From: Mycobacterium marseillense
GTDB taxonomy: Bacteria; Actinomycetota; Actinomycetes; Mycobacteriales; Mycobacteriaceae
Length of the DNA stretch: 64,000 nucleotides
NCBI RefSeq assembly: GCF_010731675.1
Contig: NZ_AP022584.1
Coordinates: forward strand, 1,550,001 to 1,614,000
Direction: 5' to 3'
Shown here: one piece after another, positions 39,742 through 54,057 of the stretch
How the letters are laid out: the number at the start of each line of letters is the position of its first letter
How positions within the stretch are numbered: the first letter of the stretch is position 1
Position numbers and translations under genes: made by a program
The notes under the pieces: model-generated
Databases searched by the model: none
What the model saw: the letters and a program-made list of their open reading frames with translations, nothing else
What the model was told of the DNA's origin: nothing

Positions 39742-41091
39742 CTATCTGCGTACTTTCTTAAACCTTGCGGAATACATTTCCGCCTCCATCAGCACCACTT
39801 TGGCCGGCACCTTGTAGTCAGTGAGCTTGGATAGACACGCCGAACGCACACGTGCACGTAGCTCCGACAGCGGTTCGGGCTCGGTGAGCGCCACGTGTGC
39901 GACCACGATCTGCCCGAGCAGTGTGTGTTTCTCGCCCTTAACAACCACGTCAGTGACGTTTGGTAGTTGCAAAATGACATCTTCGACCTCAGCTGGGTAC
40001 ACCTTCTGCCCCGCCACGTTTATTAGATCGGTCACGCGGCCCAAGATCTTGAACCACTCGCCATCGACTTCCACACGATCCTGCGTGTTGAACCAGCCAT
40101 CGTGATCAAAGGCAGACGGGGCGTTGAGGTAGCCGAGCATGCGGAACTCGGAGCGAACCCACAATATCCCTTCGCGCACCTGGGTCTCGAAGCCCTGTCC
40201 CCCAATTCGCACCCAGAGCGAGCCATCGGGGCGTGACTGAGATCGCAGCACACCAACCTCCGAAAGTCCGTACGTCTGCTGCAATTCGACGTTGGGGAAA
40301 CGCTCACGGATGCGATCCAGGGTGGCTTGCGGCATGGTTTCGGTGCCATATGTGATGCGCTTCAAGGAGCTCAGGTCGTAACGCGTCGGCAAGTCGGTCG
40401 CCGCGAGCATGGTCAGAAATGATGGAGTTGTCGGCAGCAGGTCGACGCTGTACTTCTCGATTGCCGCACATATGGTCGGCAGGAGACGGTCCTCGGTCGT
40501 AACCACGGTGCCCAGGCTGCTGGTGATGGCAAGGATGGTGTTAATGCCACCGAAATGGTCAAGCAGGAGGAATGGAACCGCCACGACTGGCGCGCGCTGT
40601 ACCTTGAACCGGTCCACGACACGCGAAAAGTCATACAGCATTCCTTTAGGCTTGCCTGTCGATCCAGATGAGAACAACACCAGGCCTGGGTTTTTCGTCC
40701 GGCGGAATTCAGTCATCAGCTGGTTGGTGACGGGCAGAGAATGTGTTTCCATCTCCCAAGTAATGCCGTTCGGGGAGAAGGTGATCCGGCGGGTACAGCC
40801 TGAGATGCTGAGCACCTCATCCTCTTCAATCACCGACCCGCGCGTCATGGGCACGACGGTTGCACGAAGCCTCGCGAGGGCCAGCAGCATGCACACAACT
40901 TCAGGCGCGTAGTCAGCCAGAACCACCACCGTTTCATGGTGCCCGACGCCGGCCTGCCGAAGTTGGAGTTCCAGGCTGGAGATGCGATCAACCATCTGGC
41001 CATAACTGAACGGCGTGCCGTGGTGAATGAAAGCCGTTCTCTCACCTGCACTTACGAAGCGCTCGATGAGCCAATCCATTGTGGCATCCAC
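39742..41091 (-). CDS. ANL superfamily acyl-activating enzyme (AMP-dependent ligase)
   Basis: 449 residues, short for the family, from GTG 41091; ATG 41079 is an alternative. The P-loop LFSSGSTGKPKG is at about 139-150, the TYGLSEVG motif follows in the middle, and KILGRVTDLINVAGQKVYPAEVE is the hinge region before the small C-terminal domain. The protein ends in ARFKKVRR, where the catalytic Lys normally sits near the terminus. It likely adenylates a small carboxylic acid and loads it onto the adjacent carrier protein. Its substrate is unknown; a short hydroxy or branched acid would fit the cassette. Last gene of the minus-strand acyl block. Confidence 0.85.
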   Translation of the reverse strand: MDATMDWLIERFVSAGERTAFIHHGTPFSYGQMVDRISSLELQLRQAGVGHHETVVVLADYAPEVVCMLLALARLRATVVPMTRGSVIEEDEVLSISGCTRRITFSPNGITWEMETHSLPVTNQLMTEFRRTKNPGLVLFSSGSTGKPKGMLYDFSRVVDRFKVQRAPVVAVPFLLLDHFGGINTILAITSSLGTVVTTEDRLLPTICAAIEKYSVDLLPTTPSFLTMLAATDLPTRYDLSSLKRITYGTETMPQATLDRIRERFPNVELQQTYGLSEVGVLRSQSRPDGSLWVRIGGQGFETQVREGILWVRSEFRMLGYLNAPSAFDHDGWFNTQDRVEVDGEWFKILGRVTDLINVAGQKVYPAEVEDVILQLPNVTDVVVKGEKHTLLGQIVVAHVALTEPEPLSELRARVRSACLSKLTDYKVPAKVVLMEAEMYSARFKKVRR

Positions 41092-41120
41092 GAAGAGCCT
41101 TTCTGGAAGGGCATTCGCGT

Positions 41121-41354
41121 TCAGGCGACCTGCTCTTGTAGTACTAACGACAAAAGCTTGAACGAGGTCGCGTTCGCGGCGTCTTCATCTGGAAACGACA
41201 CACCGAACTCTTCTTCGAGCGCCAGCACCAAACTCATCTGACGTAGCGAGTTCCAACTCTCGATACTGTCCATGCTGGCGTCCTCGCTGATCGTGGACGC
41301 GTCCACTCCCAGAACCGCGGCCATCACCTCTTTGATCTTCGCCTGATCAACCAT
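41121..41354 (-). CDS. Acyl carrier protein (FkbJ-like), partner of the FkbH-like protein
   Basis: 77 residues from ATG 41354, overlapping the fkbH-like stop by eight bases. An acidic helical bundle typical of ACPs. The phosphopantetheine site is the Ser of SWNSLRQM, within the WxSL context common in carrier proteins that pair with FkbH enzymes; LVLALEEEFGVSF follows as usual. Its position directly after the FkbH-like gene says it receives the three-carbon unit from that enzyme. Confidence 0.88.
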   Translation of the reverse strand: MVDQAKIKEVMAAVLGVDASTISEDASMDSIESWNSLRQMSLVLALEEEFGVSFPDEDAANATSFKLLSLVLQEQVA

Positions 41355-43122
41355 CAATCAACTCCACCCAATCCCTATCCGCCGGCCGAAAGTCGTCCAG
41401 TTGGATTTCGTAACGGCGGCAACCGTCCTCGGATTCTTCCACCTTTGAGAGGCCAAGCCGGTCAAAGAAGTCTGCCACCTGTGTGTTTTTCGCAGTGGGC
41501 AGATAACTCGCCGACAAGGCGCGTTTACCGTGTATTCGTGAGTCTTCAAGGACGGCACGCCACACAGCAAACTCAACCCCCCGTCCGATCACACGGCAAC
41601 TCATCAAGAACGCGTCTACCACGGCGTGTTCGCTGGTGAAGTCCACCACGATCACGCCTGTGACGCCGCACTTCCCAAACCGGTCGCTAACCTCAAACGA
41701 GTACACGGTACTGTCCGCGCGGTCCATTAGCGCCACAACTTCGCCCGGAGTGTAACGGCGCGTAGTCAAATTGAACTGGTTTGATTTTTGGGTCAGTTCG
41801 GCTATGCGGGGAATCTGCTCGCGCGCGTCGCGGTAGATGCGCACCTCCAAGTCCAACGAGCGCAGGTAATCCTCTTGATTGGCAAAGTTCGCTTGCGCGG
41901 CGGATGACTCGGCCAGCTGTCTGTAGTGACGAGTCTTGCTTTCGCTCTCGCTGATTACCCCGCCGGCCACGCAGAGCGCGGCCACGTCGCGAAGCATCGC
42001 CGGGTAGTCGCTCAACTTTTTCGGGACCTGGAACACCCTGACTTGGGGTAACTGTGTGCGAACGGCCTCCAACTCGAATACGGAGTCATCGATGAAGATG
42101 AAACTCTCGGCTCCAAGGTTTAGCTCCTTCGCCAGAGCTTGCAGGTTCGCAACCTTCGGCTCCCAATTCACCCTCTTGGCCGCGAAGTGTTCGTCCTTCA
42201 GCACCGCGTTAGGGTGCGTCGCAAATACCTCGTCCACATCTGCGGCGTTGTTCTTAGTACACAGGCAGAGCAAAACCCCGCTTGATTCAAGCTGGCGAAG
42301 CTGTTGCTGCACCGTCCAAAAGACATTGCCTGGGTAGTCGTACGGATCGAGCCCGATGCCGGTCAGCCCATCTTCGCCGACGATGCCTCCCCACAGCGTG
42401 TTGTCGCAGTCCAATGCCACAACTTTGTAGAAGTACGAATCAAAGCCACGCGTGGCCAGCGCGAAGCGGCGCGCGAACTCATCAAAGAAGGCGGGGGTAT
42501 ACGGGGCCTTGCCCGAGTAATAGAACCGCGCGTCTAACGCGGCTTTCTCCCCGAGGTGAGTCACGATCCCCGCGGTGTCGAAAAACTGCGCGTTGGCTTG
42601 CCCGTCCGCCAAGGCCTTCATTGCACGATTGAATTCGAGCAGCAACTCCCCTGCGGCTCCGTAAGGCCTGGAGTTCCACAGATGGGCGCCGGCAAGCGTC
42701 AAACGGCCTACGGAAGCGGTTTGGCCCACTGCGAGCTTGAGTTTGGAGAGCCAGGCCTGCATTCTCTCCTGCTGCTCATTGGTCGTGAGCCCATCGAGTT
42801 GAGATTCCCACGCAGCGTAGAGGTTGTCGAAAAATGGGATCACAAGCACGTGGTCAACGCCCTGGCTCACAAAGTCCGTGACGTCGTTCAGCAGATCGTC
42901 GTAGGAGCCCGTAATCACTTCCAACTTGACGTCCGCGATGTACGCATAGCGACGGAGATACGTGCCCAGAAGCTCTACCGAGATGTTGGCGGCGATTCCG
43001 AGCTTGACCGTCTGGCCGGTATGTTTTGCCTTGTCAAGAGTGGACAACGCCTTAAGCACATCGGTCATGGCCGCGGTTGGGTCGCGCAGAATCTCCAAGG
43101 CTTCAGTGCGAGCAGCACTCAC
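41347..43122 (-). CDS. FkbH-like HAD-type glyceryl-ACP loading enzyme
   Basis: 591 residues from GTG 43122. An N-terminal domain (about 1-225) is followed by the HAD core with ALDCDNTLWGGIVGEDG at about 235-250 and SFIFIDDS further on, then a C-terminal GNAT-like domain with the segment SNQFNLTTRRY that is highly typical of FkbH proteins. The family takes 1,3-bisphosphoglycerate, dephosphorylates it and puts the glyceryl unit on a dedicated ACP; in some pathways the unit is converted to lactyl. Here it sits between the MaoC-SDR fusion and the ACP. It is inferred to start the acyl chain placed on the aminosugar. Confidence 0.9.
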   Translation of the reverse strand: MSAARTEALEILRDPTAAMTDVLKALSTLDKAKHTGQTVKLGIAANISVELLGTYLRRYAYIADVKLEVITGSYDDLLNDVTDFVSQGVDHVLVIPFFDNLYAAWESQLDGLTTNEQQERMQAWLSKLKLAVGQTASVGRLTLAGAHLWNSRPYGAAGELLLEFNRAMKALADGQANAQFFDTAGIVTHLGEKAALDARFYYSGKAPYTPAFFDEFARRFALATRGFDSYFYKVVALDCDNTLWGGIVGEDGLTGIGLDPYDYPGNVFWTVQQQLRQLESSGVLLCLCTKNNAADVDEVFATHPNAVLKDEHFAAKRVNWEPKVANLQALAKELNLGAESFIFIDDSVFELEAVRTQLPQVRVFQVPKKLSDYPAMLRDVAALCVAGGVISESESKTRHYRQLAESSAAQANFANQEDYLRSLDLEVRIYRDAREQIPRIAELTQKSNQFNLTTRRYTPGEVVALMDRADSTVYSFEVSDRFGKCGVTGVIVVDFTSEHAVVDAFLMSCRVIGRGVEFAVWRAVLEDSRIHGKRALSASYLPTAKNTQVADFFDRLGLSKVEESEDGCRRYEIQLDDFRPADRDWVELIDG

Positions 43123-43147
43123 GACATCGTTCCCCCGCCATTCACCT

Positions 43148-44320
43148 TCAGGCTTTGCCCCGTGATGTAGGAGGCCTGGTCGGATAGCAAAAAGGCGACG
43201 GCCCCGCCGTATCTTCCGGCGTACCCAAGCGGCGCAACGGTTTTAGACGCGCTGTCATCAACTGCTGCTTTTCAGAAATGCCGCTGATAAATCGGGTGTC
43301 CGTCATACCCGGGGAGACGCAGTTGATCGTGATCCCCTGCGGGCCAAGCTCTGCGGCGAGGTACCGCGCCATCGTCGCCAGAGCGCCCTTGGCCGTGGCG
43401 TAAGCCGTCCACCCGCTCACGGGGGCGCCGTCGATGGATTCCGATGTAATGCAAACGATGCGGCCTCCCCCGTTATCCGCCATAAGCGGCGCGACCGCTT
43501 GGACCGACAGGAATGCGCTTTTAACCTGTACATCGAGATGCTCTTGCACTTCGGCCCAGCGCATCTCAGCGAGCGGCTTGGGGACGATACGTGGCGAGGC
43601 GGCGTTGATCAGCGCACTCACTCCCCCAAAGTGCCGTCTCGCGGCGTCGTTCAGTCGCGCGCACCCTTCCGCAGTGGACACGTCCGCCTGTACTGCTACC
43701 GCACGCGTCTCAGGGGGCTCGATTGTGTTTAGTTGGCGCACCAGCGCATCGGCTCGATCGCGGCTGTTCAGATAGTTGACAACAAGGGAGTACCCATCAG
43801 TGGCGAGCATTTCACAGATCGCGCTACCGATACCCCCGCCCCCGCCGGTGACGATGGCGACCTTGAGCGTCGGCTTCGGTGTCACAACTTTGGCCTCGGG
43901 CGCTTCAAGCAGCTTGACCTTGCCCTGGCCTTTTAACACCGTTTGGCCGTGTTGGTTGGTGATCCGCATGTCCAGCTCTAGCAGGCGGTCGCGGGCGTGT
44001 TTGCGCACCACGGTGCAGGCCACGCTGAGCGTGTCACCTAGGCGCACCGGCAAGCTGAAGTCGAATGACTGCGATACCCACAACGCGCCTGGCCCTGGAA
44101 GTTTCGTGCCTATGACGGTTGAGATGAACGAAGCGCCCAGCATGCCATGGACGACGATCTCTTTGAAGGGCGTGCGGTTCGCAAACTCGGCATCTACGTG
44201 CAGGGGGTTGTCATCCCCGGTGAGCTCGACGAACCTTCGAATGTCGACATCGGTGATGGTCTTGACCACCGAAGCAGTGTCGCCCTCTTTTACGTCGTCA
44301 AAATTGGTGAACACGGTCAT
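43148..44320 (-). CDS. MaoC-like hydratase/dehydratase fused to SDR reductase, C-terminus frameshifted
   Basis: 390 residues as read. Residues 1-140 are a MaoC hot-dog domain with GDDNPLHVD at 35-43. From about 155 there is an SDR with TGGGGGIG, NAASPR and the YATAK active site. The frame as written ends in a nonsense tail after RRLGTPEDTAG. Adding one G to the GGGG run (C run at 43202-43205 on the plus strand) restores a normal SDR end with AFLLSDQASYITGQSLKVNGG and a stop at 43123-43125, directly before the next gene. So the gene either carries a one-base deletion or the sequence has a homopolymer error. The fusion could dehydrate and reduce a carrier-bound short acyl unit. Confidence 0.85.
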   Translation of the reverse strand: MTVFTNFDDVKEGDTASVVKTITDVDIRRFVELTGDDNPLHVDAEFANRTPFKEIVVHGMLGASFISTVIGTKLPGPGALWVSQSFDFSLPVRLGDTLSVACTVVRKHARDRLLELDMRITNQHGQTVLKGQGKVKLLEAPEAKVVTPKPTLKVAIVTGGGGGIGSAICEMLATDGYSLVVNYLNSRDRADALVRQLNTIEPPETRAVAVQADVSTAEGCARLNDAARRHFGGVSALINAASPRIVPKPLAEMRWAEVQEHLDVQVKSAFLSVQAVAPLMADNGGGRIVCITSESIDGAPVSGWTAYATAKGALATMARYLAAELGPQGITINCVSPGMTDTRFISGISEKQQLMTARLKPLRRLGTPEDTAGPSPFCYPTRPPTSRGKA

Positions 44321-44405
44321 CGCAATCCTCGGTCGATCACCACACCGGCCGAGCCGAGGAACGGATGCGCACCAGCTCGGTGGACAAACATTCGCGCGAC
44401 CCGCC

Positions 44406-45446
44406 TCATTGCGGTATCTCCAAAGTCCAATCCCATACGCTCGCCGCGAAATTGAACCCCGCGCCCACGCCGGCTAGCACCACGCGCTGGCCTCGGCTCA
44501 ACTTGCGTTTGTGCACCGCTTCGCTCAGTGCGATTGCAAGCGATGCCGAGCCAGTGTTACCCACCTCGGCGACGTTGGCATATGTCTTATCCAAACCGAA
44601 GCCCATTTTTTTCACGAGGTATTCGATCAAGCGCAGATTCGCCTGGTGAAACACGACGAAGTCGATGTCGCTGATCTCGTAGCCCGACTTGGCGACTGCC
44701 TTGCGAATGGTGGGGGGCAGATGGGTGATGGCCTGCTTCCACGTCGCAATACCGTTCATCTCCATCAAGTCCACCGCGCGATCGAACGGCCGACCGTTCG
44801 TGGGAAACATCGAGCCTCCGCCGCGCTGGCGCACGGCATCGAAGTTCGAGCTGTCCGTGTGGAAGGCGGAGTGGAGGATGCCGCCTTGCTGCACTCGGCT
44901 CAGTACGGCTGCACCGGCGCCATCACTGAGGTATATGGCGGTGTTGACGTCGCTGCCATCGATGTAGCGGCTGAGCATTTCAACGCCGATAACCAGCGCG
45001 TAGCGCACAGTGTCGTCCACCTTCATGCGATCGGACGCTGCCGTCAACCCTGTAACGAAGCCCGAGCAGTTGGCTTGCACGTCGTAGATCTGTGCGTGCT
45101 TTGCCTCGAGCTGCTGCTGCACCTTGGCGGAGACCGGCGGATAGATGTAGTCCCCCGAGAAGGTGCAACAGATAATGACGTCGAGTTGCTCGGCGGTGAC
45201 TTGCGCCATCGCCATCGCTTGCTTAGCTGCGGCCACTGCGAATCCCCACGCGGTGTCTTGCGGGTCTGCAATACGGCGCTGGCGGATACCAGTTTTTTCT
45301 TCGATCCACTCGGGCGTAATGGCTTGTGCCGGGTCCAGCTTCTGGCACAGCTCGTCGTTGCCGACCACTCGCGCAGGCAGGTGGTGGCCCACTCCGACGA
45401 TGGAAACGGCGGGCATTGGGACGGCAGAAGTCGGAACAGTGTTCAT
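44406..45446 (-). CDS. 3-oxoacyl-ACP synthase III (KAS III/FabH-like)
   Basis: 346 residues. The catalytic triad is visible: Cys127 in QANCSGF, His267 in FHQANLRL, Asn297 in VGNTGSAS. TGIRQRR near residue 52 is the usual FabH surface motif. KAS III enzymes condense a CoA- or carrier-bound starter with malonyl or methylmalonyl units. In a sugar cassette this points to a dedicated short acyl chain, not to general fatty acid synthesis. It lies between the MaoC-SDR gene and a metallo-hydrolase in the same direction. Confidence 0.9.
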   Translation of the reverse strand: MNTVPTSAVPMPAVSIVGVGHHLPARVVGNDELCQKLDPAQAITPEWIEEKTGIRQRRIADPQDTAWGFAVAAAKQAMAMAQVTAEQLDVIICCTFSGDYIYPPVSAKVQQQLEAKHAQIYDVQANCSGFVTGLTAASDRMKVDDTVRYALVIGVEMLSRYIDGSDVNTAIYLSDGAGAAVLSRVQQGGILHSAFHTDSSNFDAVRQRGGGSMFPTNGRPFDRAVDLMEMNGIATWKQAITHLPPTIRKAVAKSGYEISDIDFVVFHQANLRLIEYLVKKMGFGLDKTYANVAEVGNTGSASLAIALSEAVHKRKLSRGQRVVLAGVGAGFNFAASVWDWTLEIPQ

Positions 45447-45507
45447 AGCGTAAAGGCTTGCAACCCTCTCAGTGACAGGCGTGCGCTACGTCGGCATGCA
45501 GTGCGGG

Positions 45508-46167
45508 TCAATCGATCTCCGCCATGAACTCGCGCAGCTTGTGGTTCTTTTCGTGAATGTCTTTCAGCGTCGCGCTGCCGCCGTGTCCCGGTAGTACGAG
45601 CATCTCGTCGCCCACACGGGTGAACAGGCGACGCAGTGAGCGGCGCAGCGTCCGCGAGTCCTCGCCAGGCAATTGAGATAAGCCAATTCGCTTGGCATAC
45701 AGCGAGTCTCCAGAGAAGAGCAAACCATCCACCTCGATCACAGCGCTGCCGGGGGTGTGACCCGGCACTGAATGAAAGAGGAACGACCGCCCGCCGCATT
45801 CTAGACGTGAGTCCTCGCCCTCTATCAACTGGAAATCCGGCAGTTCGATGCGCTTTTCGATCTTAAAAGCGGCCATCATGAAGTTAGACATTTTGGCCGC
45901 TTTTATATCGGCCGCGCAAAGGTAGACAGGGATGTGGTGCTGCGATTGCAGTTGAGCCGCTCCGCCTACATGGTCGAAGTGACCGTGAGTGCACAGCACA
46001 GCTTCAGGGGCCCAGTCGAGGTCGTTCAGCTTCTTCTCCAACGACGCGGAATCCAGTCCTGGGTCGACGATCACACAACGACCAGGTGCGCCAGAGGCTA
46101 AAAGGTACGTGTTTGAGGAAAAGCCTTGGTTTGCCACGATTTGCAAAGCGTCGGCGCTGGTAGTCAT
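45508..46167 (-). CDS. Metallo-beta-lactamase fold hydrolase
   Basis: 219 residues. THGHFDH at 60-66 is the HxHxDH metal site; further ligands are the His of VPGHTPGS, an Asp in FSGDSLY and the His of VLPGHGG near residue 198. This is the glyoxalase II-like branch. Within a carrier-protein assembly line it may be a thioesterase that cleans or releases acyl groups. It could instead act on an unrelated thioester. About 60-70 bases separate it from each neighbour. Confidence 0.85.
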   Translation of the reverse strand: MTTSADALQIVANQGFSSNTYLLASGAPGRCVIVDPGLDSASLEKKLNDLDWAPEAVLCTHGHFDHVGGAAQLQSQHHIPVYLCAADIKAAKMSNFMMAAFKIEKRIELPDFQLIEGEDSRLECGGRSFLFHSVPGHTPGSAVIEVDGLLFSGDSLYAKRIGLSQLPGEDSRTLRRSLRRLFTRVGDEMLVLPGHGGSATLKDIHEKNHKLREFMAEID

Positions 46168-46239: not shown

Positions 46240-46956
46240 TCAATGCACCCCGCCGAGGTACACCGTCTGCGCAGTAATACACCCGCTGCCAGGCCCGCAA
46301 AAGAAATCGAGCACATGCGCCACGTCTTCACGCGTCGCCATGCGCGCAAGCGGCAGGGCGGCGATCACGGCATTGACTTTATCGCGCGGTAGCTGGCTTA
46401 ACATGTCGGTTTCGAAGGCGCTGACCCCGAGCGTGTTACAGGTGATGTTGGTGGTGGCCAGTTCCTTTGCCATTATGTTGGCGAGAGTGGTGACCGCAGC
46501 CTTGGTGGCAGCGTAGACCGAGTCGCCCATTGGCTCTAGGCTCACGGCCATCGAGCTCACGCTGACGATGCGACCCCATTTACCCTTGCGCATGAGCTTC
46601 GCGGCCTCGCGTGAGACGAGGAACGTGCCTAATATATTCGTTTCGACCATGGCCTGGGCCGACGCGGCCGGCAGTATCATCGCGTACTGCGAGGTCAGCA
46701 CTGCAGCGTTGTTGACGCAGATGTCCAGCTTGCCGAAACGTTTGCGAATTTCTTCGAAACCAGCGCTGACTGAACTTGCGTCCCCGATGTCGACGGCTAC
46801 GTCGTAGCGACGGTCCGACTTGGGAACTTCATCGACATGGCGACTAAACCCCACCACTTGGGCCCCGCGCCGCTCGAAATGTTCAGCGACCACGGCGCCC
46901 AGGCCCCGACGCGCGCCGGTTACCAACACCACCTTTTCGTCATAGCTTGCGGACAT
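46240..46956 (-). CDS. SDR family reductase, FabG-like
   Basis: 238 residues. TGARRGLG at about 14-21, NNAA near 85, and a Ser-Tyr-Lys active site with YAATK near 160. It begins nine bases after the stop of the upstream carrier protein. The reading as a 3-oxoacyl-carrier reductase is supported by its place next to ACP, KAS III and FkbH genes. It would reduce the 3-keto product of the KAS III to a 3-hydroxyacyl chain. Confidence 0.85.
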   Translation of the reverse strand: MSASYDEKVVLVTGARRGLGAVVAEHFERRGAQVVGFSRHVDEVPKSDRRYDVAVDIGDASSVSAGFEEIRKRFGKLDICVNNAAVLTSQYAMILPAASAQAMVETNILGTFLVSREAAKLMRKGKWGRIVSVSSMAVSLEPMGDSVYAATKAAVTTLANIMAKELATTNITCNTLGVSAFETDMLSQLPRDKVNAVIAALPLARMATREDVAHVLDFFCGPGSGCITAQTVYLGGVH

Positions 46957-46965
46957 CGCCGTTAC

Positions 46966-47262
46966 TCAGTCGCCCAGCAGTTCGAGGATGTAGGCGGTCA
47001 GTGTCGAGACGTTCAGAAATGGAACCGGATCGCGCTCCATAGCTGCGTCGTCTGTCAGGCTGACGGGCTGGCCGAATTCGTCGGCGGACAGCGTCTCGAT
47101 GTCGACCATGACTGAGACGAGTTCAAGTGAATTCAACGACGCATCGGGTCCAAAAAGGGCCGTGCCAGGACCGACGTCGATCTGCTCATCCGACGCGCGC
47201 TCTTTGTTCAACGTTTCGAGAGCCTGAAAAATGATGCGTTCGACTGCTTCTTTGTTGCTCAT
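46966..47262 (-). CDS. Acyl carrier protein, second copy
   Basis: 98 residues from ATG 47262, with GGAG about eight bases upstream; longer starts lack this signal. The Ser of NSLELVSVMVDIE is the likely phosphopantetheine site. It is longer than the ACP at 41121 and differs in sequence, so the cassette has two non-equivalent carriers. It stands directly before the SDR, MBL and KAS III genes, which suggests it carries the elongating chain, while the other carries the FkbH starter (inference). Confidence 0.8.
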   Translation of the reverse strand: MSNKEAVERIIFQALETLNKERASDEQIDVGPGTALFGPDASLNSLELVSVMVDIETLSADEFGQPVSLTDDAAMERDPVPFLNVSTLTAYILELLGD

Positions 47263-47367
47263 GCTTGGACTCCGTTGCATCTCTTGATTTTTGCCCGCGG
47301 AACCGCCCACGCTGCCCGACCGACACGCGGGACGGGCGTGTTGGCAACAAGCGTTCCTAAACGCACC

Positions 47368-47946
47368 TCACTTCGCCTTTCTTGCCGCTTTGATAAAGAC
47401 CTCCATATTTGGCTTCGTCTTTGCCGCGTACTCTTCGGCCAGCAAACCAAAAATTACCGCATCCTGGAATTTTCCGTTTATGAAATAGTGGTTACGCAAC
47501 CGCCCCTCTTCGGTCATCCCCATGAATTTCTGCCACTTGATCATGAGCTTGTTGTCGGACGCGACAGATCCATGCACTCGTTGTAATCCCAGCTTGCCGA
47601 ACGCCAGCTCGTACACGAGCTTCATGGCCTCTACCGCTACCGGCAGGCCGCGCACTGCCTCTTCGTCCCCGATTAAGAAGCGTCCCGGTTCAGCACGGCG
47701 GTGCGTGGTATCGACGCCAGTCAGAGAGACCATACCTACGCGACGGCCATCTTTTAGCTCAATGATGAAGTTATATTCCGAGTCGGGCCGCGTGGCGATC
47801 CAATTCGTTTGCTGCTCGAGGCTCTGCGGAGGGACGTTCAAGTTGGCCGCGCGCGCGCTTTTGCGCCACGTAAGGGTCAGTGAAGCGTCATCCACCGCTA
47901 TCGGACGCAGGGTGACGAACTCGCCCTCGAGGGTGATGTCTGCCAT
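47368..47946 (-). CDS. GNAT family N-acyltransferase, aminosugar acylation candidate
   Basis: 192 residues from ATG 47946, eight bases or fewer after the methyltransferase stop; a frame extension to 47970 is possible. The pattern is RimJ/PseH-like: FVTLRPIAVDDA at the start, IELKDGRRVGMVSL for strand 4, and YELAFGKLGLQRVHGSVASDNK near the acyl donor site. PseH-like enzymes N-acetylate aminosugars. Here the neighbours suggest it transfers the specialised acyl chain from its carrier to the 3-amino group of the dideoxyhexose. The donor could also be acetyl-CoA. Confidence 0.82.
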   Translation of the reverse strand: MADITLEGEFVTLRPIAVDDASLTLTWRKSARAANLNVPPQSLEQQTNWIATRPDSEYNFIIELKDGRRVGMVSLTGVDTTHRRAEPGRFLIGDEEAVRGLPVAVEAMKLVYELAFGKLGLQRVHGSVASDNKLMIKWQKFMGMTEEGRLRNHYFINGKFQDAVIFGLLAEEYAAKTKPNMEVFIKAARKAK

Positions 47947-47951
47947 GAAGC

Positions 47952-48941
47952 TCAGCGCTCCGGGGTGCACACCATGGCCATCGCGCCGGGGACGGGCACG
48001 CCCCGCGTCGGAGCTGGGTAGGCGTTGGCGAAGTAGTAGTGCTCCACGTGGAGGCCCGCTTCCTCGGCTTGCGCGAGGACGTCCTCGGCATTTCGGTAAA
48101 GGTAAATGTGGTCGGCGTTGGCGGCGTTGAGCGCGGCGGTGATGAAGAGCTTGCCGGCGGGGGCCGTCATGTTCTTCAGGGCTCGCAGTAACGCCACGGG
48201 GTCTTCGAGGTGTTCAAGCACCTCCACGCAGATCACGTGACTCACTTGGTCTTCCGGTGGCTGCGCGATAACGTCGCGCAAGCTGGTGTCATAGCGATCC
48301 AACAGCCCAAAAGCCTCGAGGTGAGCGCGGGTGAAGCGGACCGAGACCGGACTCAGGTCGTAACCAAGGCCTTCCGCCTTCGACACTGCCTGCAAAGCAG
48401 TGCGGGAGTACACACCTGTGCCGATACCGACCTCGGCAAAACGGGGTTGGGCCTCTTTAGCCAGCGAGGGCAAGAAGAACCGCTCGAAATACTGCAACTG
48501 CAGGTAGTGATGCGGCCATAGGTAATGAGAGAGCAGCAGCCCCGGCAAGTATTGCGTGTGCATGTACTCATCGTTCAGGTAAACCTCTTGCGCAGCCTCG
48601 GCGAACGTCTTGGCAGGGTATTCGCGTTCCGCCTCGAAGCGCCGTTGGCGGCGCATCGAGTCCACTGCAAAGGCGGCATAACCCTTGACCGCGTCGGCCA
48701 TCGCCAGTGGATCACGGTAGACGCGGGCCAGTAGCTGCTCGAAGGCGTTGTCCCATTCAGAACCGAACTCGACGCTGGCCCGTTCAATGCTGCCGCGCGC
48801 AAAGCGGGCCTGCGTCTCGATGAGGGCCTGCGCGGCCTGGGTGTACTCGCGGGTCATCGGTTGAATCCCGTCCTCGTCGATTCCAGTCAGGCGTGGGCCC
48901 CCAGGCCCAGCGAGAGTGGGAGCGCGTTGGGTCGTTGGCAT
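47952..48941 (-). CDS. Class I SAM-dependent methyltransferase
   Basis: 329 residues from 48941; ATG 48857 would give about 301 residues and is as likely. A helical N-terminal part of about 150 residues precedes the SAM-binding domain with EVGIGTGVYSR, then ICVEVLEHLEDP as motif II and a loop at LFITAALNAANADH. It is coupled with the GNAT gene. It is a candidate for O-methylation of the acyl chain or of a rhamnose. The substrate cannot be read from sequence. Confidence 0.85.
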   Translation of the reverse strand: MPTTQRAPTLAGPGGPRLTGIDEDGIQPMTREYTQAAQALIETQARFARGSIERASVEFGSEWDNAFEQLLARVYRDPLAMADAVKGYAAFAVDSMRRQRRFEAEREYPAKTFAEAAQEVYLNDEYMHTQYLPGLLLSHYLWPHHYLQLQYFERFFLPSLAKEAQPRFAEVGIGTGVYSRTALQAVSKAEGLGYDLSPVSVRFTRAHLEAFGLLDRYDTSLRDVIAQPPEDQVSHVICVEVLEHLEDPVALLRALKNMTAPAGKLFITAALNAANADHIYLYRNAEDVLAQAEEAGLHVEHYYFANAYPAPTRGVPVPGAMAMVCTPER

Positions 48942-49198: not shown

Positions 49199-50275
49199 TC
49201 AGCGGGCATCGCGGCGGCGACGCACCTCGATACTCAAGCCGCGAACACCGCGGTGACGACGTAGCTCGATGATCACGTTACGTCGCGGTAAGAGGCGCAG
49301 GAGCACTGCGTGGGGCGGAGGCATTTGGTCCCGGAAATCCTCGCTGAAATCCCTGAAGGCCGTTCGGAAAGCATGTTCGCTCGCCCGATAGGCGTCGTAA
49401 ACACGATTCAGCGCGGACTCTTGCCAGGGCTCGTCACGCGCGGCCGCTCGGGCCGCCTGATAGACGGTGGAAACCCAATCTGTGCCGAATGGCTCCGGCA
49501 CCGGACCGTAGTCGCGATTGCGATGAAGATCCCTCGTGAGGAACTCGTCGATTGCGCGCTCATCGCGATGGGCCAGGTCGATTCCGAGCGCAGCGGAAAT
49601 CCGTTTAATTTCGCGGCGCCAGTCGTCGAGAAGGTTGGCATATTCGACAAATACGCGTGGCACGCCGCGCGTATTCCGCTCGGCCAGAAGGTTGTACTTG
49701 AGCCACATGGCGCTCGGAAGCGCATGCGGAAGCTCCGGTGAGAGCCTCCGACTCGCCGCAACTGACGCGATGACCTCCTGTGGGCGGCGCAAGGCGACCA
49801 CGACCGCGATGTCGAATCCTGCCTGTCGCGCCGCCGCAAACCACATCTCCGAAAGTGCCGTTATATAGAGGTCTTTAATCACTACAAGTGGCGCGTACGG
49901 CAGCGTCGTGAGGAAAGCCTTAATCTTGTCGATGAAGGCGGTCTTTTCTTCGACACCGATCGCGCCGTCTTCCTGCAAACGCAGTGACGGGTCGGCATCG
50001 GTGCTGTAGTGGCGGCGCAGCATATGGCCGTTGAGATGGTGAGTCTCACGCGGTTCCCAGTAGCCACGCGGATTATAGGAGTCGGCGACTTCGAGCTCGG
50101 CCGGAAGCGTAGCGCCGCACAGCGAGAGGACACGCGTGAGCGCCGACGTTCCGGACCGAGGCATGCCGAGAACGAATAAGGCGACCGGTCGGCCTCTGGT
50201 CCCCGTGGCTGCGGCGTGAACACTCAAGGGTACGTCCTTGCGATTGAGAGGCGACGCGGGGCAACGGCGCGGCAT
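49199..50275 (-). CDS. Sulfotransferase family protein
   Basis: 358 residues from ATG 50275; TTG 50227, with AAGGAC upstream, is a plausible shorter start. The PAPS 5'-phosphosulfate loop is visible as LGMPRSGTSAL at 36-46, with the partner motif VVALRRPQEVIASV near 165. The C-terminus is very basic (Arg-rich). This would transfer sulfate from PAPS to a sugar or lipid. M. avium complex GPLs are not generally described as sulfated, so its role is open; it could be a decoy fold with another group transferred. Unlinked spacing on both sides suggests its own promoter. Confidence 0.8.
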   Translation of the reverse strand: MPRRCPASPLNRKDVPLSVHAAATGTRGRPVALFVLGMPRSGTSALTRVLSLCGATLPAELEVADSYNPRGYWEPRETHHLNGHMLRRHYSTDADPSLRLQEDGAIGVEEKTAFIDKIKAFLTTLPYAPLVVIKDLYITALSEMWFAAARQAGFDIAVVVALRRPQEVIASVAASRRLSPELPHALPSAMWLKYNLLAERNTRGVPRVFVEYANLLDDWRREIKRISAALGIDLAHRDERAIDEFLTRDLHRNRDYGPVPEPFGTDWVSTVYQAARAAARDEPWQESALNRVYDAYRASEHAFRTAFRDFSEDFRDQMPPPHAVLLRLLPRRNVIIELRRHRGVRGLSIEVRRRRDAR

Positions 50276-51081
50276 CGGGCGTCTGACGGTTCGAAAAACG
50301 CTTCATGCCATCGAGCGAGCGGAACGGTGCTACCTAGCGAGTTGTTCGTTTTCATCGCCGCATCAATGTGATGGGTCTGCACTGTCCTCGGATGGAACGG
50401 ATGAGACACTGCGGCTCTGGTCGCGGCAGTGCGTCGACGCGTGCTCATCAAGGCGAGATCTTACGCGTGCGTCAGAAATGACGGCAATAGGGCACGCCCA
50501 CATTTACGAACTTCACCCGCAACGAAATCCGGTGGCTCACTGTTCAACTCGTCCTTCCAGCAGTTATCGGGGCGATATGGCGACACTCTTGGTTGCACGA
50601 AAGCAGGCCACGTCCAAAGGCTTTAGAAGACACGGTGAAGTCTTGATGCGCTCGGCTAAGCCCGCCGCTGCAAAGTTGACTGCTATGCGCCTGGCACACA
50701 GCGCATCCCACAGCTGGCAGCCGTTCAGATTGAATGCCGATGGCTTACCAGACCTGGGTCACCGTAGCAACATTGGATCCAGCCTTCCGCCAGGCGCTGA
50801 GTCCACCTAGCAACTTGCCCGCGTCGCAGATCTTCCGCGGCAAATCGGGGCCGCGCGTGTGGCGGGGAGGAGCGCCGCGCACGCGTGCCTCACGGCGCTA
50901 GCGGATTGGAACCGTTCAAACGCATGGACGTAGCTAATATTTATTGGCGATTATCGCTAACCGTGTCGCGACTGAGACCGGCAACCGCCACGAGAAAACG
51001 TGCCGCCTCGGATCGGGCGATTCTTACGTTTACCGGCAGGACCGCGCCCGCAAGCCATTACGGCCAAAAACCCACGTCACG
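50276..51081. other. 806-base intergenic stretch, no gene recognised
   Basis: Both strands hold only short frames with no recognisable motif. An AT-rich patch with TAATATTTATTGG lies near 50936-50948 and could be part of a promoter. A short iteration ACGTCACGTCACGTCGCGTCG is at about 51073-51093, at the end of the aminotransferase gene. The stretch may be leftover DNA from cassette assembly. The sulfotransferase promoter should lie in its left part. Confidence 0.5.
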
Positions 51082-52224
51082 TCACGTCGCGTCGCCGTTG
51101 TCCGGACTTGACGTAAACGATCGGCAGGCGTCAACCACGCGGGAGATGTCTTCGTCCCGCAGATGGGGGCCAATGGGCAGGCTCAGGTGAGTTCGCGCCG
51201 CCCGCTCTGTGATGGGGAAGGCACCCTCGCCGAGCTCTAGTGATGCAAACGCACCAGACCTGTGCGGTGGGATCGGGTAGTGCACCAGAGTCTGAATCCC
51301 TCTGGTAATCAGGTACTTCTGTAAATTATCGCGAGATGCATGGTCGACGACGTAGAGATGCCACACATGCTCTCGATTAGGCGCGACCGCGGGCACTCCG
51401 AGGCCGGGCACGTCCGCGAGTTCGTCGGTGTAGCGTTTTGCGATCGCTTGCCGACGAGCATTCCAGTCGTCGAGGTGCTGCAATTTGATGCGCAATACCG
51501 CAGCTTGGATCTCGTCGAGCCGTGAATTCGCTCCAAGCAGGTCATGAACGTATTTCTTGCTGCTGCCATAGTTCCCGAGTGACCGGACACGAGCAGCAAT
51601 ACCTGCGTCGTCGGTAGTTACGGCTCCCCCGTCACCAAGCGCCCCAAGGTTTTTCCCAGGATAGAAGCTCCAGGCCACCGCGTCGCCGTGAGCGCCAATG
51701 CGCCGGCCGCTGTAGCGCGCCCCATGCGCCTGCGCCGCGTCCTCTACCACCGCCAACCCGTGTTTCTTCGCCACGTCGAGAAGTTCAGCAAGATCCGCGG
51801 GTTGGCCGAAGAGGTGTACGGGAACGAGGGCACGGGTGCGCGGGGTAATGGACTCAGCTACGCGAGCGGGATCAAGGTTCCACTGGCCGACGACCGGCTC
51901 CACGCCCACTGGCCGAGCACCGGTGTGTGCCACCGCGATCCATGTGGCGATGAAAGTATGTGCCGGAACGATAACTTCATCGCCTGGCCCGACCCCAAGC
52001 GCTTTCAATGCCAGAGTAATAGCATCCAAGCCATTGCCAACTCCAACGGCATGTCGGGCCTCCGTAAATTCAGCAAACTCCCGCTCAAACGCCGCCGTCT
52101 CTTCGCCAAGTACGTACCAGCCGCTGCGCACGACCCGCTCGACTGCTTCCCGCACAGGTGCATCGAGTTCCTGGGTGGCGGCGCGAACATCGAGAAAGGG
52201 CACCTGTGCAGGGACGTCAGGCAT
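51082..52224 (-). CDS. DegT/DnrJ/EryC1 family sugar aminotransferase (FdtB-like)
   Basis: 380 residues. The PLP lysine is Lys191 in SFYPGKNLGALGDGGA, preceded by EDAAQAHGA at 161-169 that holds the cofactor ring. The family transfers an amino group to 3- or 4-keto-6-deoxy dTDP-sugars. Because two FdtA-like 3,4-ketoisomerases sit directly upstream, the product should be a dTDP-3-amino-3,6-dideoxyhexose, not a 4-amino sugar. dTDP-4-keto-6-deoxyglucose would come from RmlA/RmlB encoded elsewhere. It follows the isomerase gene by 45 bases in the same operon. Confidence 0.92.
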   Translation of the reverse strand: MPDVPAQVPFLDVRAATQELDAPVREAVERVVRSGWYVLGEETAAFEREFAEFTEARHAVGVGNGLDAITLALKALGVGPGDEVIVPAHTFIATWIAVAHTGARPVGVEPVVGQWNLDPARVAESITPRTRALVPVHLFGQPADLAELLDVAKKHGLAVVEDAAQAHGARYSGRRIGAHGDAVAWSFYPGKNLGALGDGGAVTTDDAGIAARVRSLGNYGSSKKYVHDLLGANSRLDEIQAAVLRIKLQHLDDWNARRQAIAKRYTDELADVPGLGVPAVAPNREHVWHLYVVDHASRDNLQKYLITRGIQTLVHYPIPPHRSGAFASLELGEGAFPITERAARTHLSLPIGPHLRDEDISRVVDACRSFTSSPDNGDAT

Positions 52225-52269
52225 GACGGTTCCTTGCTTCGACTACGCGGCCGACAGGCCGTAGCCCGA

Positions 52270-52704
52270 TCAACCGATATCACCCCCATCGGCACGGGCG
52301 CGGACCATCGACAAGAAGTCCCCATAGTCTCGGATGTAGTCGCGTTCGTCGTAGGGTAGCGAGGCGAACACCAAACATATGGCTCCGGTGCAGAAGCCGG
52401 TGATTTCGCGCCAGATCATGCTCGGCAGGTAAAGGCCATAATACGAGCGGTCGAGTGAAACGGTCCGTTGGTTCTCTCCGTCGTCGAGGGTGACGGCGAA
52501 CGACCCCGAAGCTGCAACGATCAATTGTTGCAACTCTCGATGTGCGTGGCCACCGCGCTCTGCACCACCAGGAACGTCGTAAAGGTAGTAGACCCGCTTG
52601 ATTGCAAAAGGGACGTGGACCTCGCCATATAGGGGAGACAGAGCGCCGCTGGTACTTTCGATTTTGTCCAGATCCACCAATCTGCATTCGTCTACGCGAC
52701 TCAT
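52270..52704 (-). CDS. FdtA/QdtA-like cupin sugar 3,4-ketoisomerase
   Basis: 144 residues. A WxcM-like cupin with VKR-type core IKRVYYLYDVPGG, GGHAHREL (His53, His55) and VTLDDG. FdtA and QdtA convert dTDP-4-keto-6-deoxyglucose to the 3-keto isomer, and the pair of His residues in this motif is important for catalysis in characterised members. Both are present here, so this copy is probably the active isomerase. The start overlaps the stop of the next upstream gene (ATGA). Whether the product has galacto or gluco shape cannot be told. Confidence 0.9.
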   Translation of the reverse strand: MSRVDECRLVDLDKIESTSGALSPLYGEVHVPFAIKRVYYLYDVPGGAERGGHAHRELQQLIVAASGSFAVTLDDGENQRTVSLDRSYYGLYLPSMIWREITGFCTGAICLVFASLPYDERDYIRDYGDFLSMVRARADGGDIG

Positions 52705-53114
52705 TGCTCATTCCTGAGCCGTAGAAAGTCACCATAATCGCGTACGTAATCGGCAGGCGTGAATGGGTTAGAAGCGAGGACGAGCGCCACCGAGTTCGTG
52801 GAGAAGTTGATCATTTCCCGCCATATGAGGTTAGGAACGAAAAGAGCATGGTAAGACCGGTTCAACACGTAACGCACTTGATGGGAGCCATCGTCCAAGG
52901 TGACCTCGAAACTCCCTGACAGCGCAAGTATCAACTCCTGGCCTGTCCGGTAAGCATGGCCTCCGCGCATTGAGCCGCCCGGGACGTCATAAATCCAGAA
53001 GGCGCGTTCTACTTCAAAGGGCAGATACTCCCCCGATTCGATGAAGGTGAGGTTGCCCCGTGGATCGTGAATTTTGGGTAGATCGATCAGCCGGCAGTCG
53101 TTGGTGCTGATCAT
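52701..53114 (-). CDS. FdtA-like cupin paralog with altered active-site motif
   Basis: 137 residues from ATG 53114; an extension to 53195 is possible but does not resemble the family. It follows the same plan as its neighbour: DPRGNLTFIESGEYLPF, FWIYDVPGG, VTLDDG and the RDYGDFL end. The key motif reads GGHAYRTG, with Tyr55 where the neighbour has His55. It may be inactive, a partner subunit, or act on a different keto sugar. The coupling of both genes by an ATGA overlap suggests the two proteins are made together. Confidence 0.87.
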   Translation of the reverse strand: MISTNDCRLIDLPKIHDPRGNLTFIESGEYLPFEVERAFWIYDVPGGSMRGGHAYRTGQELILALSGSFEVTLDDGSHQVRYVLNRSYHALFVPNLIWREMINFSTNSVALVLASNPFTPADYVRDYGDFLRLRNEQ

Positions 53115-53355
53115 GGATTGCCTTGCAGCTTCGGATTTAATTGCAGTGCGACAGCAAACGCGAGGGTCGGCCGCGAGTGCGATCGTCCGCCGCATACAGG
53201 TCGCAGTACGGCCGGCTTTACCCTGCGTAGTTTTCCGGCTGCAATCTTTTGCACCAATGCCTCCCGCAAAAAGCGATACAAACTCGTCCCGGACCAGTGC
53301 TAACGCATTACGCAGTAGTCGATATCAGATGTAGGTGTGCAATTCCATCGCATAG

Positions 53356-54057
53356 CTATTCGCGTGTAAAAATGAAGGCATGGTTCCTGAAGTTCCGCAA
53401 CCTGCCAAAGCGGCCGCAGTCCTTCTTGTATACCAGCTTAAACCCGAGCTGAGAGACCTTCGCCTCGAGGTCGGTGTCTGTGATGCCCCACTGCCAAATG
53501 CCGGGGAAGTCACGCCACGGCCTGTCCATTTCAGGGTGCTTCTCACTAAGCTTCTCGAAAAGGTTTTCGTACTCGTCTATTCGCCGACTGTGCGGCACGT
53601 TACGGAAGTATTCTTTCTCGCCTAAATCCAGCAGGCGGACAGTTTCTTCCGAACCCGTCCACTGCTGGTTATAAATCAACAGCGAATTCGTCTGCTTTGC
53701 GTACATTTCGAGTATTGCATCCCAGTCAGGGGACACCTGGTGCAGCAATACATCGAACAAGAAGACCGCATCCATGTTACCAACTTGGTCGGCCACGGCT
53801 TGATCGCCAAAATTGCCGCCGACAAGGCGAAGCTGCGGATGGGACTGTGCCCGCGCGCTGACGGTCGGCGTCACGTTGAGGTCGACCAGCGCTGCATCCT
53901 TTATCTGGTGTGTCTCCAACGCATGAAATGTGTACGCGCCTTCGACCCTCCAAACAGCGCCCAAGTCCGCGAACGATTGGATGCCAAGAGAGGTGAATGC
54001 CCGATCTATGAGCTCGATTTTGTCGTTGTTAACCACTCGTCGAGCAAGTTGAAACAC
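53356..54057 (-). CDS. SAM-dependent methyltransferase-like protein
   Basis: 233 residues. FADLGAVWRVEGAYTF near residue 30 is a degenerate SAM-binding motif I, ALVDLNVTP provides the acidic strand-2 end, and AVFLFDVLLHQVSPDW corresponds to motif II with the following helix. It is the first gene of the aminosugar operon on this strand, 241 bases before the FdtA-like paralog. It could O-methylate the aminosugar, the acyl group or a rhamnose. The fold assignment is reasonable; the substrate is unknown. Confidence 0.72.
   Translation of the reverse strand: MFQLARRVVNNDKIELIDRAFTSLGIQSFADLGAVWRVEGAYTFHALETHQIKDAALVDLNVTPTVSARAQSHPQLRLVGGNFGDQAVADQVGNMDAVFLFDVLLHQVSPDWDAILEMYAKQTNSLLIYNQQWTGSEETVRLLDLGEKEYFRNVPHSRRIDEYENLFEKLSEKHPEMDRPWRDFPGIWQWGITDTDLEAKVSQLGFKLVYKKDCGRFGRLRNFRNHAFIFTRE

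What the first reader, a model, noticed from the sequence alone, without database searches (positions are those of the whole stretch)
39742..54057. Complete acyl-aminosugar cassette: FkbH starter, KAS III extension and N-acylation of a 3-amino-3,6-dideoxyhexose
Seen: an FkbH-like loader, two ACPs, KAS III with an intact Cys-His-Asn triad, a MaoC-SDR fusion, an SDR, a metallo-hydrolase, an ANL ligase, a GNAT transferase, methyltransferases, FdtA-like isomerases and a DegT aminotransferase in one block. Known: FkbH enzymes make glyceryl- or lactyl-ACP; FdtA plus DegT give 3-amino-3,6-dideoxy dTDP-sugars; serovar 16 GPL was reported with a 2-methyl-3-hydroxy-4-methoxypentanoyl-amido dideoxyhexose. 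Inferred route: glyceryl-ACP is converted to lactyl-ACP (MaoC-SDR), O-methylated, extended by KAS III with a methylmalonyl unit, reduced by the SDR, then moved to the amino group by the GNAT enzyme. Each atom of that acyl chain is accounted for. This would be a mini polyketide line devoted to an antigen cap.
Basis: partly seen in the sequence, partly recalled or inferred. Interest (0 to 1): 0.8.

Follow-up and report, generated by a model that had tools for sequence, protein, structure and literature searches.

The report
Portable acyl-arm cassette for surface aminosugars
A block of genes in a mycobacterium's cell-surface antigen locus looks like a tiny assembly line that builds a short branched acid from sugar-breakdown products and hangs it on an amino sugar, and the same block turns up almost gene for gene in distant bacteria, which makes the proposed route testable in harmless species.

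Summary
The genes are real: ligase, ACP1, FkbH, MaoC-SDR, KAS III, metallo-hydrolase, SDR, ACP2, GNAT, MT1, DegT and two FdtA genes, minus strand, in a glycopeptidolipid-type locus. Sixty other loci carry the MaoC-SDR pair with FkbH. Of the 48 with KAS III, 27 keep the window's exact nine-gene order; 37 carry DegT, 34 FdtA. Ten loci not cut by contig ends lack KAS III and keep only MaoC-SDR, FkbH and ACP1, so there are two modules: starter and extender. A methylmalonyl-CoA mutase gene lies beside the cassette in 7 of 7 cassette-bearing genomes of one genus (Duganella); 2 of 67 others have the gene. That favours a methylmalonyl extender. Against "complete, every atom accounted for": the window's MaoC-SDR loses its frame near the 3' end; ligase and hydrolase have no assigned step; MT1 may be an O- or C-methyltransferase; no chemistry was tested. 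KAS III/ACP/reductase lines for sugar caps are already published; the FkbH starter half is the part I found undescribed.

The parts
39742..41091 (-). ANL-family adenylate-forming ligase; step unassigned (extender activation or acyl recovery)
   Evidence: PF00501/PF13193; in 46 of 48 KAS III loci and 0 of 10 uncut KAS III-less loci
41121..41354 (-). ACP1, starter carrier; listed as ORF 41121-41357 with a TTG start
   Evidence: PF00550; Ser37 in 60 of 60 rows, window included
41347..43122 (-). FkbH-type HAD loader (glyceryl-ACP formation predicted)
   Evidence: TIGR01686 266 bits vs 147; in 60 of 60 MaoC-SDR loci
43148..44320 (-). MaoC-SDR fusion (predicted glyceryl-ACP to lactyl-ACP); reading frame lost near the 3' end in this assembly
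   Evidence: PF01575 + PF00106; D36/H41 and Y307/K311 in 60 of 60 rows, window included; C-terminus departs from 24 of 24 relatives
44406..45446 (-). KAS III, predicted lactyl-primed condensation
   Evidence: NF006829 299 bits vs 249; C127/H267/N297 in 49 of 49 rows, window included
45508..46167 (-). metallo-beta-lactamase-fold hydrolase; predicted editing thioesterase
   Evidence: PF00753; solved chains next to it include hydroxyacylglutathione hydrolases; H61, H63, D65, H66, H137, D154, H195 in 43 of 43 rows
46240..46956 (-). SDR, predicted 3-ketoacyl-ACP reductase
   Evidence: PF00106; TIGR01830 147 bits, below its cut-off of 298
46966..47310 (-). ACP2, predicted extender/product carrier; true start may lie further in
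   Evidence: no Pfam hit; Ser61 in 40 of 40 rows
47368..47970 (-). GNAT N-acyltransferase; fourth position of the CoA-loop motif is Pro
   Evidence: PF13302; P110 in 38 of 38 rows; PseH model 35 bits, below cut-off 93
47952..48941 (-). MT1, class I methyltransferase (4-O- or 2-C-methyl), optional part
   Evidence: PF08242; in 23 of 48 KAS III loci; fold inconclusive
49199..50275 (-). sulfotransferase-like protein, role unknown; not part of the widespread cassette
   Evidence: PF13469 31 bits vs 27; among the fetched loci a relative was seen only in L004
51082..52224 (-). DegT-family sugar aminotransferase, probably 3-amino
   Evidence: PF01041 400 bits; solved relatives 2oga (447 bits) and QdtB 3frk (379 bits) among the top three
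52270..52704 (-). FdtA-type 3,4-ketoisomerase, copy 2
   Evidence: PF05523 169 bits
52701..53195 (-). FdtA-type 3,4-ketoisomerase, copy 1
   Evidence: PF05523 163 bits; solved FdtA/QdtA relatives
   Evidence: no Pfam or NCBIfam match; among the fetched loci a relative was seen only in L004

Best explanation
The block is a horizontally acquired acyl-arm cassette with two modules, set beside genes for a dTDP-3-amino-3,6-dideoxyhexose in a glycopeptidolipid locus. Starter module: FkbH takes a glyceryl group from 1,3-bisphosphoglycerate and loads it on ACP1; the MaoC half dehydrates glyceryl-ACP1 to the enol of pyruvyl-ACP1 and the SDR half reduces it to lactyl-ACP1. Extension module: KAS III is primed by lactyl and condenses it with a (methyl)malonyl unit on ACP2, the separate SDR reduces the 3-keto group, and the GNAT moves the finished chain from ACP2 to the sugar's 3-amino group. 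MT1, where present, methylates the chain, most likely the lactyl-derived 4-hydroxyl. The hydrolase most likely clears stalled thioesters; the ANL ligase either activates the extender acid or reloads freed acyl chains. Shown: gene content, order, conserved catalytic residues, co-occurrence, modular separation, linkage to methylmalonyl-CoA mutase in one genus. Inferred: every chemical step.
For: In the 60 loci with both MaoC-SDR halves (one ORF in 59, split in L051) FkbH is present in 60 and ACP1 in 59 (the miss, L026, is a 5-kb contig). Ten KAS III-less loci not cut where KAS III would lie keep MaoC-SDR/FkbH/ACP1 and have no ANL, hydrolase, SDR, ACP2 or cassette GNAT above the limits used, so MaoC-SDR acts on the FkbH product rather than on a KAS III product. 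KAS III loci (48): ANL 46, hydrolase 42, SDR 40, ACP2 39, GNAT 37, DegT 37, FdtA 34, MT1 23; exact nine-gene order of the window in 27. Catalytic residues invariant. The MaoC half resembles a solved (R)-specific enoyl-CoA hydratase (5cpg). A methylmalonyl-CoA mutase (NF006944, 1226 bits vs 876 for the L059 copy) lies 2.6-3.6 kb from KAS III in 7 of 7 cassette genomes of the genus of L030 (Duganella); at E up to 1e-180, 2 of 67 cassette-free genomes have one (hypergeometric 2e-8, which ignores kinship). It is there also without MT1 (L023, L037, L039), so the 2-methyl need not come from MT1. GNAT loop Pro in 38 of 38 suits an ACP rather than a CoA donor. Two of DegT's top three solved relatives are 3-aminotransferases by recalled function. 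Published lines of the same kind: PMC3927599, PMC6519341 (passages).
Against: No acyl chain or enzyme activity was seen for any locus. The window's own MaoC-SDR lacks the conserved C-terminus, so this strain may not run the starter step. The KAS III-less loci are diverged (39-45% identity), though three KAS III loci (L044, L048, L063) are equally so. The mutase block also stands without the cassette in two genomes, and the seven genomes are kin, so linkage may partly reflect an insertion site; no mutase was found next to the other cassettes (7 loci only). The mutase is in 29 of 29 cassette genomes tested but also in 168 of 186 genomes of a Polynucleobacter-type genus, so presence alone says little. 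MT1's fold matches O- and C-methyltransferases alike. The GNAT-loop reasoning rests on a recalled motif. 14 of 48 KAS III loci show no FdtA and 11 no DegT above the limits, some but not all for contig ends (8 of 36 long loci lack FdtA).
Confidence: 0.68

Rival explanations
1. The lactyl or other hydroxy-acid starter is a free acid activated by the ANL ligase onto ACP1, and FkbH/MaoC-SDR do something else.
For: ANL is in 46 of 48 KAS III loci and sits next to ACP1 in the common order.
Against: ANL is absent from the ten uncut loci that keep MaoC-SDR/FkbH/ACP1 without KAS III, so the starter set seems to work without it; FkbH is in 60 of 60.
Confidence: 0.12
2. FkbH loads a lactyl group directly, so MaoC-SDR acts later, on the extended chain.
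For: A pathway-reconstruction program (PMC7901079, passage) writes FkbH as giving D-lactate-ACP from 1,3-bisphosphoglycerate.
Against: MaoC-SDR accompanies FkbH/ACP1 with no KAS III in ten uncut loci, where no extended chain is expected; FkbH enzymes in tetronate and methoxymalonate paths are described as giving glyceryl-ACP (PMC7489565, passages).
Confidence: 0.1
3. The FkbH/ACP/KAS III trio makes a tetronate-like or methoxymalonyl unit, as in antibiotic clusters, and the sugar genes are neighbours by chance.
For: FkbH, a stand-alone ACP and a FabH-like enzyme belong to the glycerate-utilisation operon of tetronates (PMC7489565, passages).
Against: 37 of 48 KAS III loci carry DegT, 34 FdtA and 37 the same GNAT; no acyl-CoA dehydrogenase appears in the Pfam tables of the block.
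Confidence: 0.05
4. MT1 is the 2-C-methyltransferase and the extender is plain malonyl; the 4-methoxy group comes from another enzyme.
For: Top fold matches of MT1 include C-methyltransferases Fur6 and SgvM; no acyltransferase-type methylmalonyl loader appears in the Pfam tables of the block.
Against: The methylmalonyl-CoA mutase is linked to the cassette also where MT1 is absent (L023, L037, L039).
Confidence: 0.25

Closest known systems
Viosamine island of Pseudomonas syringae pv. tabaci (vioA, vioM, vioT, vioS, vioB, vioR, acp) and the homologous genes of the P. aeruginosa PAK glycosylation island; PMC3927599, passages seen
   Same: KAS III, ketoacyl-ACP reductase, ACP, sugar N-acyltransferase, aminotransferase and methyltransferase serving a short hydroxyacyl arm on a dideoxy amino sugar at the end of a surface glycan
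   Different: No FkbH, MaoC-SDR, second ACP, ANL or metallo-hydrolase among the seven genes listed; arm is 3-hydroxybutanoyl on viosamine (a 4-amino sugar, recalled)
Flavobacterium psychrophilum O-polysaccharide R-group genes wfpC-wfpG; PMC6519341, passages seen
   Same: ACP, ketoacyl-ACP synthases, ketoacyl-ACP reductase and acyltransferase predicted to make and attach a 3,5-dihydroxyhexanoyl arm; R-group genes influence antigenicity
   Different: Two synthases, no FkbH starter in the passages seen; acyltransferase is PglD-like; the acylated amino group is at C4
Tetronate glycerate-utilisation operon and methoxymalonyl-ACP operon; PMC7489565, passages seen
   Same: FkbH-type enzyme and stand-alone ACP making glyceryl-ACP; FabH-like partner in tetronates
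   Different: Not sugar clusters; glyceryl is kept or oxidised there, here predicted to be dehydrated and reduced by a MaoC-SDR fusion
Mycobacterium intracellulare serovar 16 glycopeptidolipid cluster (Fujiwara et al. 2008; recalled, nothing seen, paper not held)
   Same: As recalled: a serotype-specific region between gtfB and drrC making an acylated 3-amino-3,6-dideoxyhexose; the window's block lies between drr-like ABC genes and EryCIII-like glycosyltransferase genes
   Different: Sequence identity with that record was not tested; the recalled abstract names no FkbH/KAS III route

Membership tests
FkbH family (TIGR01686) | score above the curated cut-off | tested here: met
   266 bits vs 147
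FkbH family (TIGR01686) | loads glyceryl from 1,3-bisphosphoglycerate on an ACP | not testable with these tools
   needs purified protein
Beta-ketoacyl-ACP synthase III | Cys-His-Asn triad and family score | tested here: met
   C127/H267/N297 in 49 of 49 rows; NF006829 met; TIGR00747 268 bits, below its 292
Viosamine-island-type sugar acyl line | KAS III + reductase + ACP + N-acyltransferase + sugar aminotransferase in one cluster | tested here: met
   recurrent in other genomes
Viosamine-island-type sugar acyl line | acyl arm seen on the sugar and lost in mutants | not testable with these tools
   no chemistry available
Tetronate glycerate-utilisation operon | FkbH, ACP and FabH-like plus the Agg4/Agg5-type acetylation and elimination pair | tested here: inconclusive
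   first three present; only a GNAT and a MaoC domain seen in the Pfam tables; Agg4/Agg5 were not used as queries
Methoxymalonyl-ACP operon | acyl-CoA-dehydrogenase-type and hydroxyacyl-CoA-dehydrogenase oxidations of glyceryl-ACP (enzyme classes recalled) | tested here: not met
   no such Pfam match up to E 0.001 among the genes of the block
dTDP-3-amino-3,6-dideoxyhexose pathway (FdtA + 3-aminotransferase) | 3,4-ketoisomerase and DegT aminotransferase side by side | tested here: met
   PF05523 twice and PF01041; solved relatives include 2oga and QdtB
Serovar 16 glycopeptidolipid cluster | the strain carries the acylated aminosugar glycopeptidolipid | not testable with these tools
   strain unnamed; structure paper not held

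The most novel reading that the evidence does not exclude
A previously undescribed, mobile nine-gene family of surface-sugar acyl cassettes in which a two-domain MaoC-SDR enzyme turns glyceryl-ACP into lactyl-ACP by dehydration and re-reduction, giving cells a lactyl starter straight from glycolysis. Alone, the three-gene starter module would N-lactylate sugars; joined to the KAS III module and a methylmalonyl supply it would build 2-methyl-3-hydroxy-4-(O-methyl)pentanoyl arms. Its KAS III form would occur in ten phyla, and the mycobacterial serotype would be a late import related to copies in Burkholderiales.
Probability: 0.5. Interest if true: 0.72.

Novelty: new variant of a known kind. Interest (0 to 1): 0.6.

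Why it matters
If right, it explains how bacteria make lactyl and methoxy-methyl-pentanoyl caps on surface sugars from glycolytic and methylmalonyl intermediates, adds a new reaction (glyceryl-ACP to lactyl-ACP by a MaoC-SDR fusion) to FkbH chemistry, gives sequence markers for predicting acylated aminosugars in many phyla, and links a mycobacterial serotype to genes that came from another phylum. The route can be tested with enzymes of harmless environmental species.

Tried and rejected
Viral and plasmid collections: the KAS III profile had no confirmed relative in viral contigs; plasmids held 40 records with KAS III proteins, all under 60% identity, and no DNA match to the block. A second ORF at 45443-45799 was rejected as a gene (no Pfam, third-position G+C low, overlaps the hydrolase). 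MT1 fold search to decide O- or C-methylation: inconclusive. Model of the protein beside the starter module in Winogradskyella (L056): mean pLDDT 50, not used. The methylmalonyl mutase test in the Polynucleobacter-type genus: uninformative, because 168 of 186 genomes have the mutase. Rfam search of 37000-60500: nothing at gathering scores. Promoter and terminator scan of 48800-54700: no more than in shuffles. My first count of MT1 gains and losses (at least 7) included loci cut before MT1; with those left out (37 rows) it is at least 5, and 8 on the tree drawn. Dropped before counting: 20 of the 80 loci (L064-L083) match only the MaoC half and show no other cassette gene (L080 one at 26 bits); 213 relatives existed, 80 were kept by the tool. 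Of the 12 KAS III-less loci two (L012, L051) are cut where KAS III would lie and were set aside; L053 has 3.9 kb there; nine have about 9.5 kb or more on both sides. Presence calls use fixed bit-score limits, so a missing gene may be a diverged one. Literature: all ten searches used, listings of at most 25 papers each; by title and start of abstract none was about an FkbH/MaoC-SDR sugar route; the library lacks most subscription journals.
Full report
What was checked. The finding names a block at 39742-54057. The enzyme types it lists were found there on the minus strand, except that the second methyltransferase (53356-54057) has no family match. Two ACPs exist: one of 77-78 residues between the ligase and FkbH (41121-41354) and one of up to 114 residues between the SDR and the GNAT (46966-47310). 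The window also has NRPS genes, two MmpL genes, a drrA-like ABC gene with two membrane partners, GT2 genes and three EryCIII-like glycosyltransferase genes, which by recalled knowledge is the set-up of a mycobacterial glycopeptidolipid locus. The window is part of a 5.5-Mb genome. The block 39742-48941 has 59% G+C and the sugar genes 58%, against 70% in the NRPS/PKS stretch, as expected of an import.

How rare it is at home. With a limit of E 1e-60, KAS III was found in 2 of 248 genomes of the genus, the window's own included; with a limit of 1e-100, FkbH was found in 1 of 119 relatives, the window's own genome. In 246 genomes of the phylum the window's KAS III scored 662 bits and the next best 264.

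The same cassette elsewhere. A scan for the MaoC-SDR profile in 84,980 species genomes kept the best 80 of 213 loci. Sixty (L004-L063) hold both halves, in one ORF in 59 and split in L051; 20 hold only a MaoC half and were dropped. In the 60, FkbH is present in 60, ACP1 in 59 and KAS III in 48 (fixed score limits). Among the 48: ANL 46, metallo-hydrolase 42, SDR 40, ACP2 39, GNAT 37, DegT 37, FdtA 34, MT1 23. Some of the misses are contig ends: among the 36 loci of at least 17 kb the counts are ANL 36, ACP2 34, SDR 34, hydrolase 33, GNAT 32, DegT 31, FdtA 28. The order GNAT-ACP2-SDR-hydrolase-KAS III-MaoC-SDR-FkbH-ACP1-ANL, which is the window's order, is exact in 27 of 48. By the labels of the tree tool the 48 plus the window come from ten phyla, several of them through one metagenome bin each. 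In that quick, midpoint-rooted tree the two mycobacterial copies join a group of Burkholderiales and one Gemmatimonadota copy with full support, apart from the other actinobacterial copies (Geodermatophilaceae). With loci that are cut before MT1 left out (37 rows), MT1 was gained or lost at least 5 times.

Two modules. Twelve of the 60 loci lack KAS III. Two (L012, L051) are cut by their contigs where KAS III would lie. In the other ten, ANL, hydrolase, SDR, ACP2 and the cassette GNAT are also missing at the limits used, while FkbH and ACP1 remain; L053 has only 3.9 kb upstream, the other nine have about 9.5 kb or more on both sides. Nine of the ten show a DegT-like gene, at 84-173 bits, below the limit used for the cassettes. 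A GNAT-family gene lies directly before MaoC-SDR in L045 and hexapeptide transferases nearby in L046 and L049; in L050, L052 and L055-L057 a protein of 300-380 residues follows ACP1, whose family was not settled. So MaoC-SDR goes with FkbH and ACP1 and does not need KAS III. The simplest chemistry is dehydration of glyceryl-ACP, tautomerisation to pyruvyl-ACP and reduction to lactyl-ACP. This is inference; the MaoC half resembles an (R)-specific enoyl-CoA hydratase (5cpg), whose substrates are 3-hydroxyacyl thioesters, as glyceryl-ACP is. These loci are diverged (39-45% identity), which weakens the argument.

Catalytic residues (rows include the window): KAS III C127, H267, N297 in 49 of 49; MaoC D36 and H41 and SDR Y307 and K311 of the fusion in 60 of 60; ACP1 Ser37 in 60 of 60; ACP2 Ser61 in 40 of 40; SDR Y148 and K152 in 41 of 41; hydrolase H61, H63, D65, H66, H137, D154 and H195 in 43 of 43; FkbH D238 and D240 in at least 97% of 61 rows (L019 is partial). 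In the GNAT, the fourth position of the CoA-binding loop motif (recalled motif [QR]xxGx[GA]) is proline in 38 of 38, which suits a carrier protein rather than CoA as donor; this is a hint only.

The extender. In seven loci, all Oxalobacteraceae, a methylmalonyl-CoA mutase gene stands beside the cassette (family model run on the L059 copy). In the 74 genomes of the genus of L030, cassette KAS III (E up to 1e-100) occurs in 7 and a true mutase (E up to 1e-180) in 9; all 7 cassette genomes have the mutase 2.6-3.6 kb from KAS III, and 2 of 67 others have one (2e-8 if genomes were independent, which they are not). In a wider family draw the mutase is in 8 of 145 and the cassette in 1 of 145. The two mutases without a cassette share a neighbour gene with the linked ones, so the mutase block can stand alone. 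Three of the seven loci lack MT1. This favours methylmalonyl as extender and hence as source of the 2-methyl group. An epimerase-like gene is nearby in three loci (42 bits for the L059 copy, below its cut-off of 115). Against over-reading: the other cassettes have no mutase within the fetched stretch; all 29 cassette genomes tested, of 48, have one somewhere, but so do 168 of 186 genomes of the Polynucleobacter-type genus, where cassette-like KAS III is in 4 of 186, two of them diverged.

What is not placed. ANL and hydrolase go with the KAS III half. The hydrolase is near hydroxyacylglutathione hydrolases, enzymes of hydroxyacyl thioesters, so editing is a fair guess. For ANL, extender activation or recovery of freed acyl chains are both open. 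MT1 is a class I methyltransferase with an N-terminal helical part; O- and C-methyltransferases tie in the fold searches.

The frame break. The window's MaoC-SDR departs from all 24 aligned relatives in its last part and ends about 17 residues on; the active-site residues lie upstream. Intact copies exist in other strains and species. Whether this is a real mutation or an assembly error cannot be told here.

What is known. A KAS III, reductase, ACP, acyltransferase, aminotransferase line for a hydroxybutanoyl arm on viosamine is published (PMC3927599, passages), and a comparable predicted line for a dihydroxyhexanoyl arm of an O-antigen (PMC6519341, passages). FkbH with ACP gives glyceryl-ACP in tetronate and methoxymalonate paths (PMC7489565, passages). 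The serovar 16 structure and its gene cluster (Fujiwara et al. 2008) are recalled; the paper is not held and a library search for the acyl name found nothing. So the kind is known and the locus probably too; the FkbH starter module, its two-module build and its spread are what I did not find described.

Verdict. The route is the best reading, at about two in three, with the methyl and ligase steps open.

Noticed in passing
window 43148-43220: MaoC-SDR reading frame is lost near the 3' end relative to 24 of 24 aligned relatives; real mutation or assembly error not decided.
   Followed up: partly
window 49199-50275: Sulfotransferase-like gene (PF13469) inside the block; among the fetched loci a relative was seen only in M. 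rhizamassiliense L004, in another position; a sulfated antigen is possible.
   Followed up: no
window 52270-53195: Two FdtA-type ketoisomerase genes in tandem (also in L004), where the other fetched cassettes show at most one; purpose unknown.
   Followed up: no
window 54625-56859: Acyltransferase-3/SGNH protein, weakly like SucT (257 bits, cut-off 1275), next to the sugar block on the other strand.
   Followed up: no
L059:3284-5548 and equivalents in L023, L030, L032, L033, L037, L039: Methylmalonyl-CoA mutase gene beside the cassette, with an unknown 296-residue-type protein next to it in six of the seven loci.
   Followed up: yes
L155:7307-16677: Diverged cassette in a genome of the Polynucleobacter-type genus, followed by a PIG-L-type deacetylase, suggesting a different sugar route.
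   Followed up: partly
L154:76-4048: Hydrolase, KAS III and MaoC-SDR without a detected FkbH, beside ORFs that look transposase-like by eye; perhaps a decayed cassette.
   Followed up: no
L045-L047 excluded; L045, L046, L049, L050, L052-L057: Starter module alone (MaoC-SDR, FkbH, ACP) in Bacteroidota, Elusimicrobia, Omnitrophota and Nitrospirae genomes; candidate N-lactyl sugar loci.
   Followed up: partly
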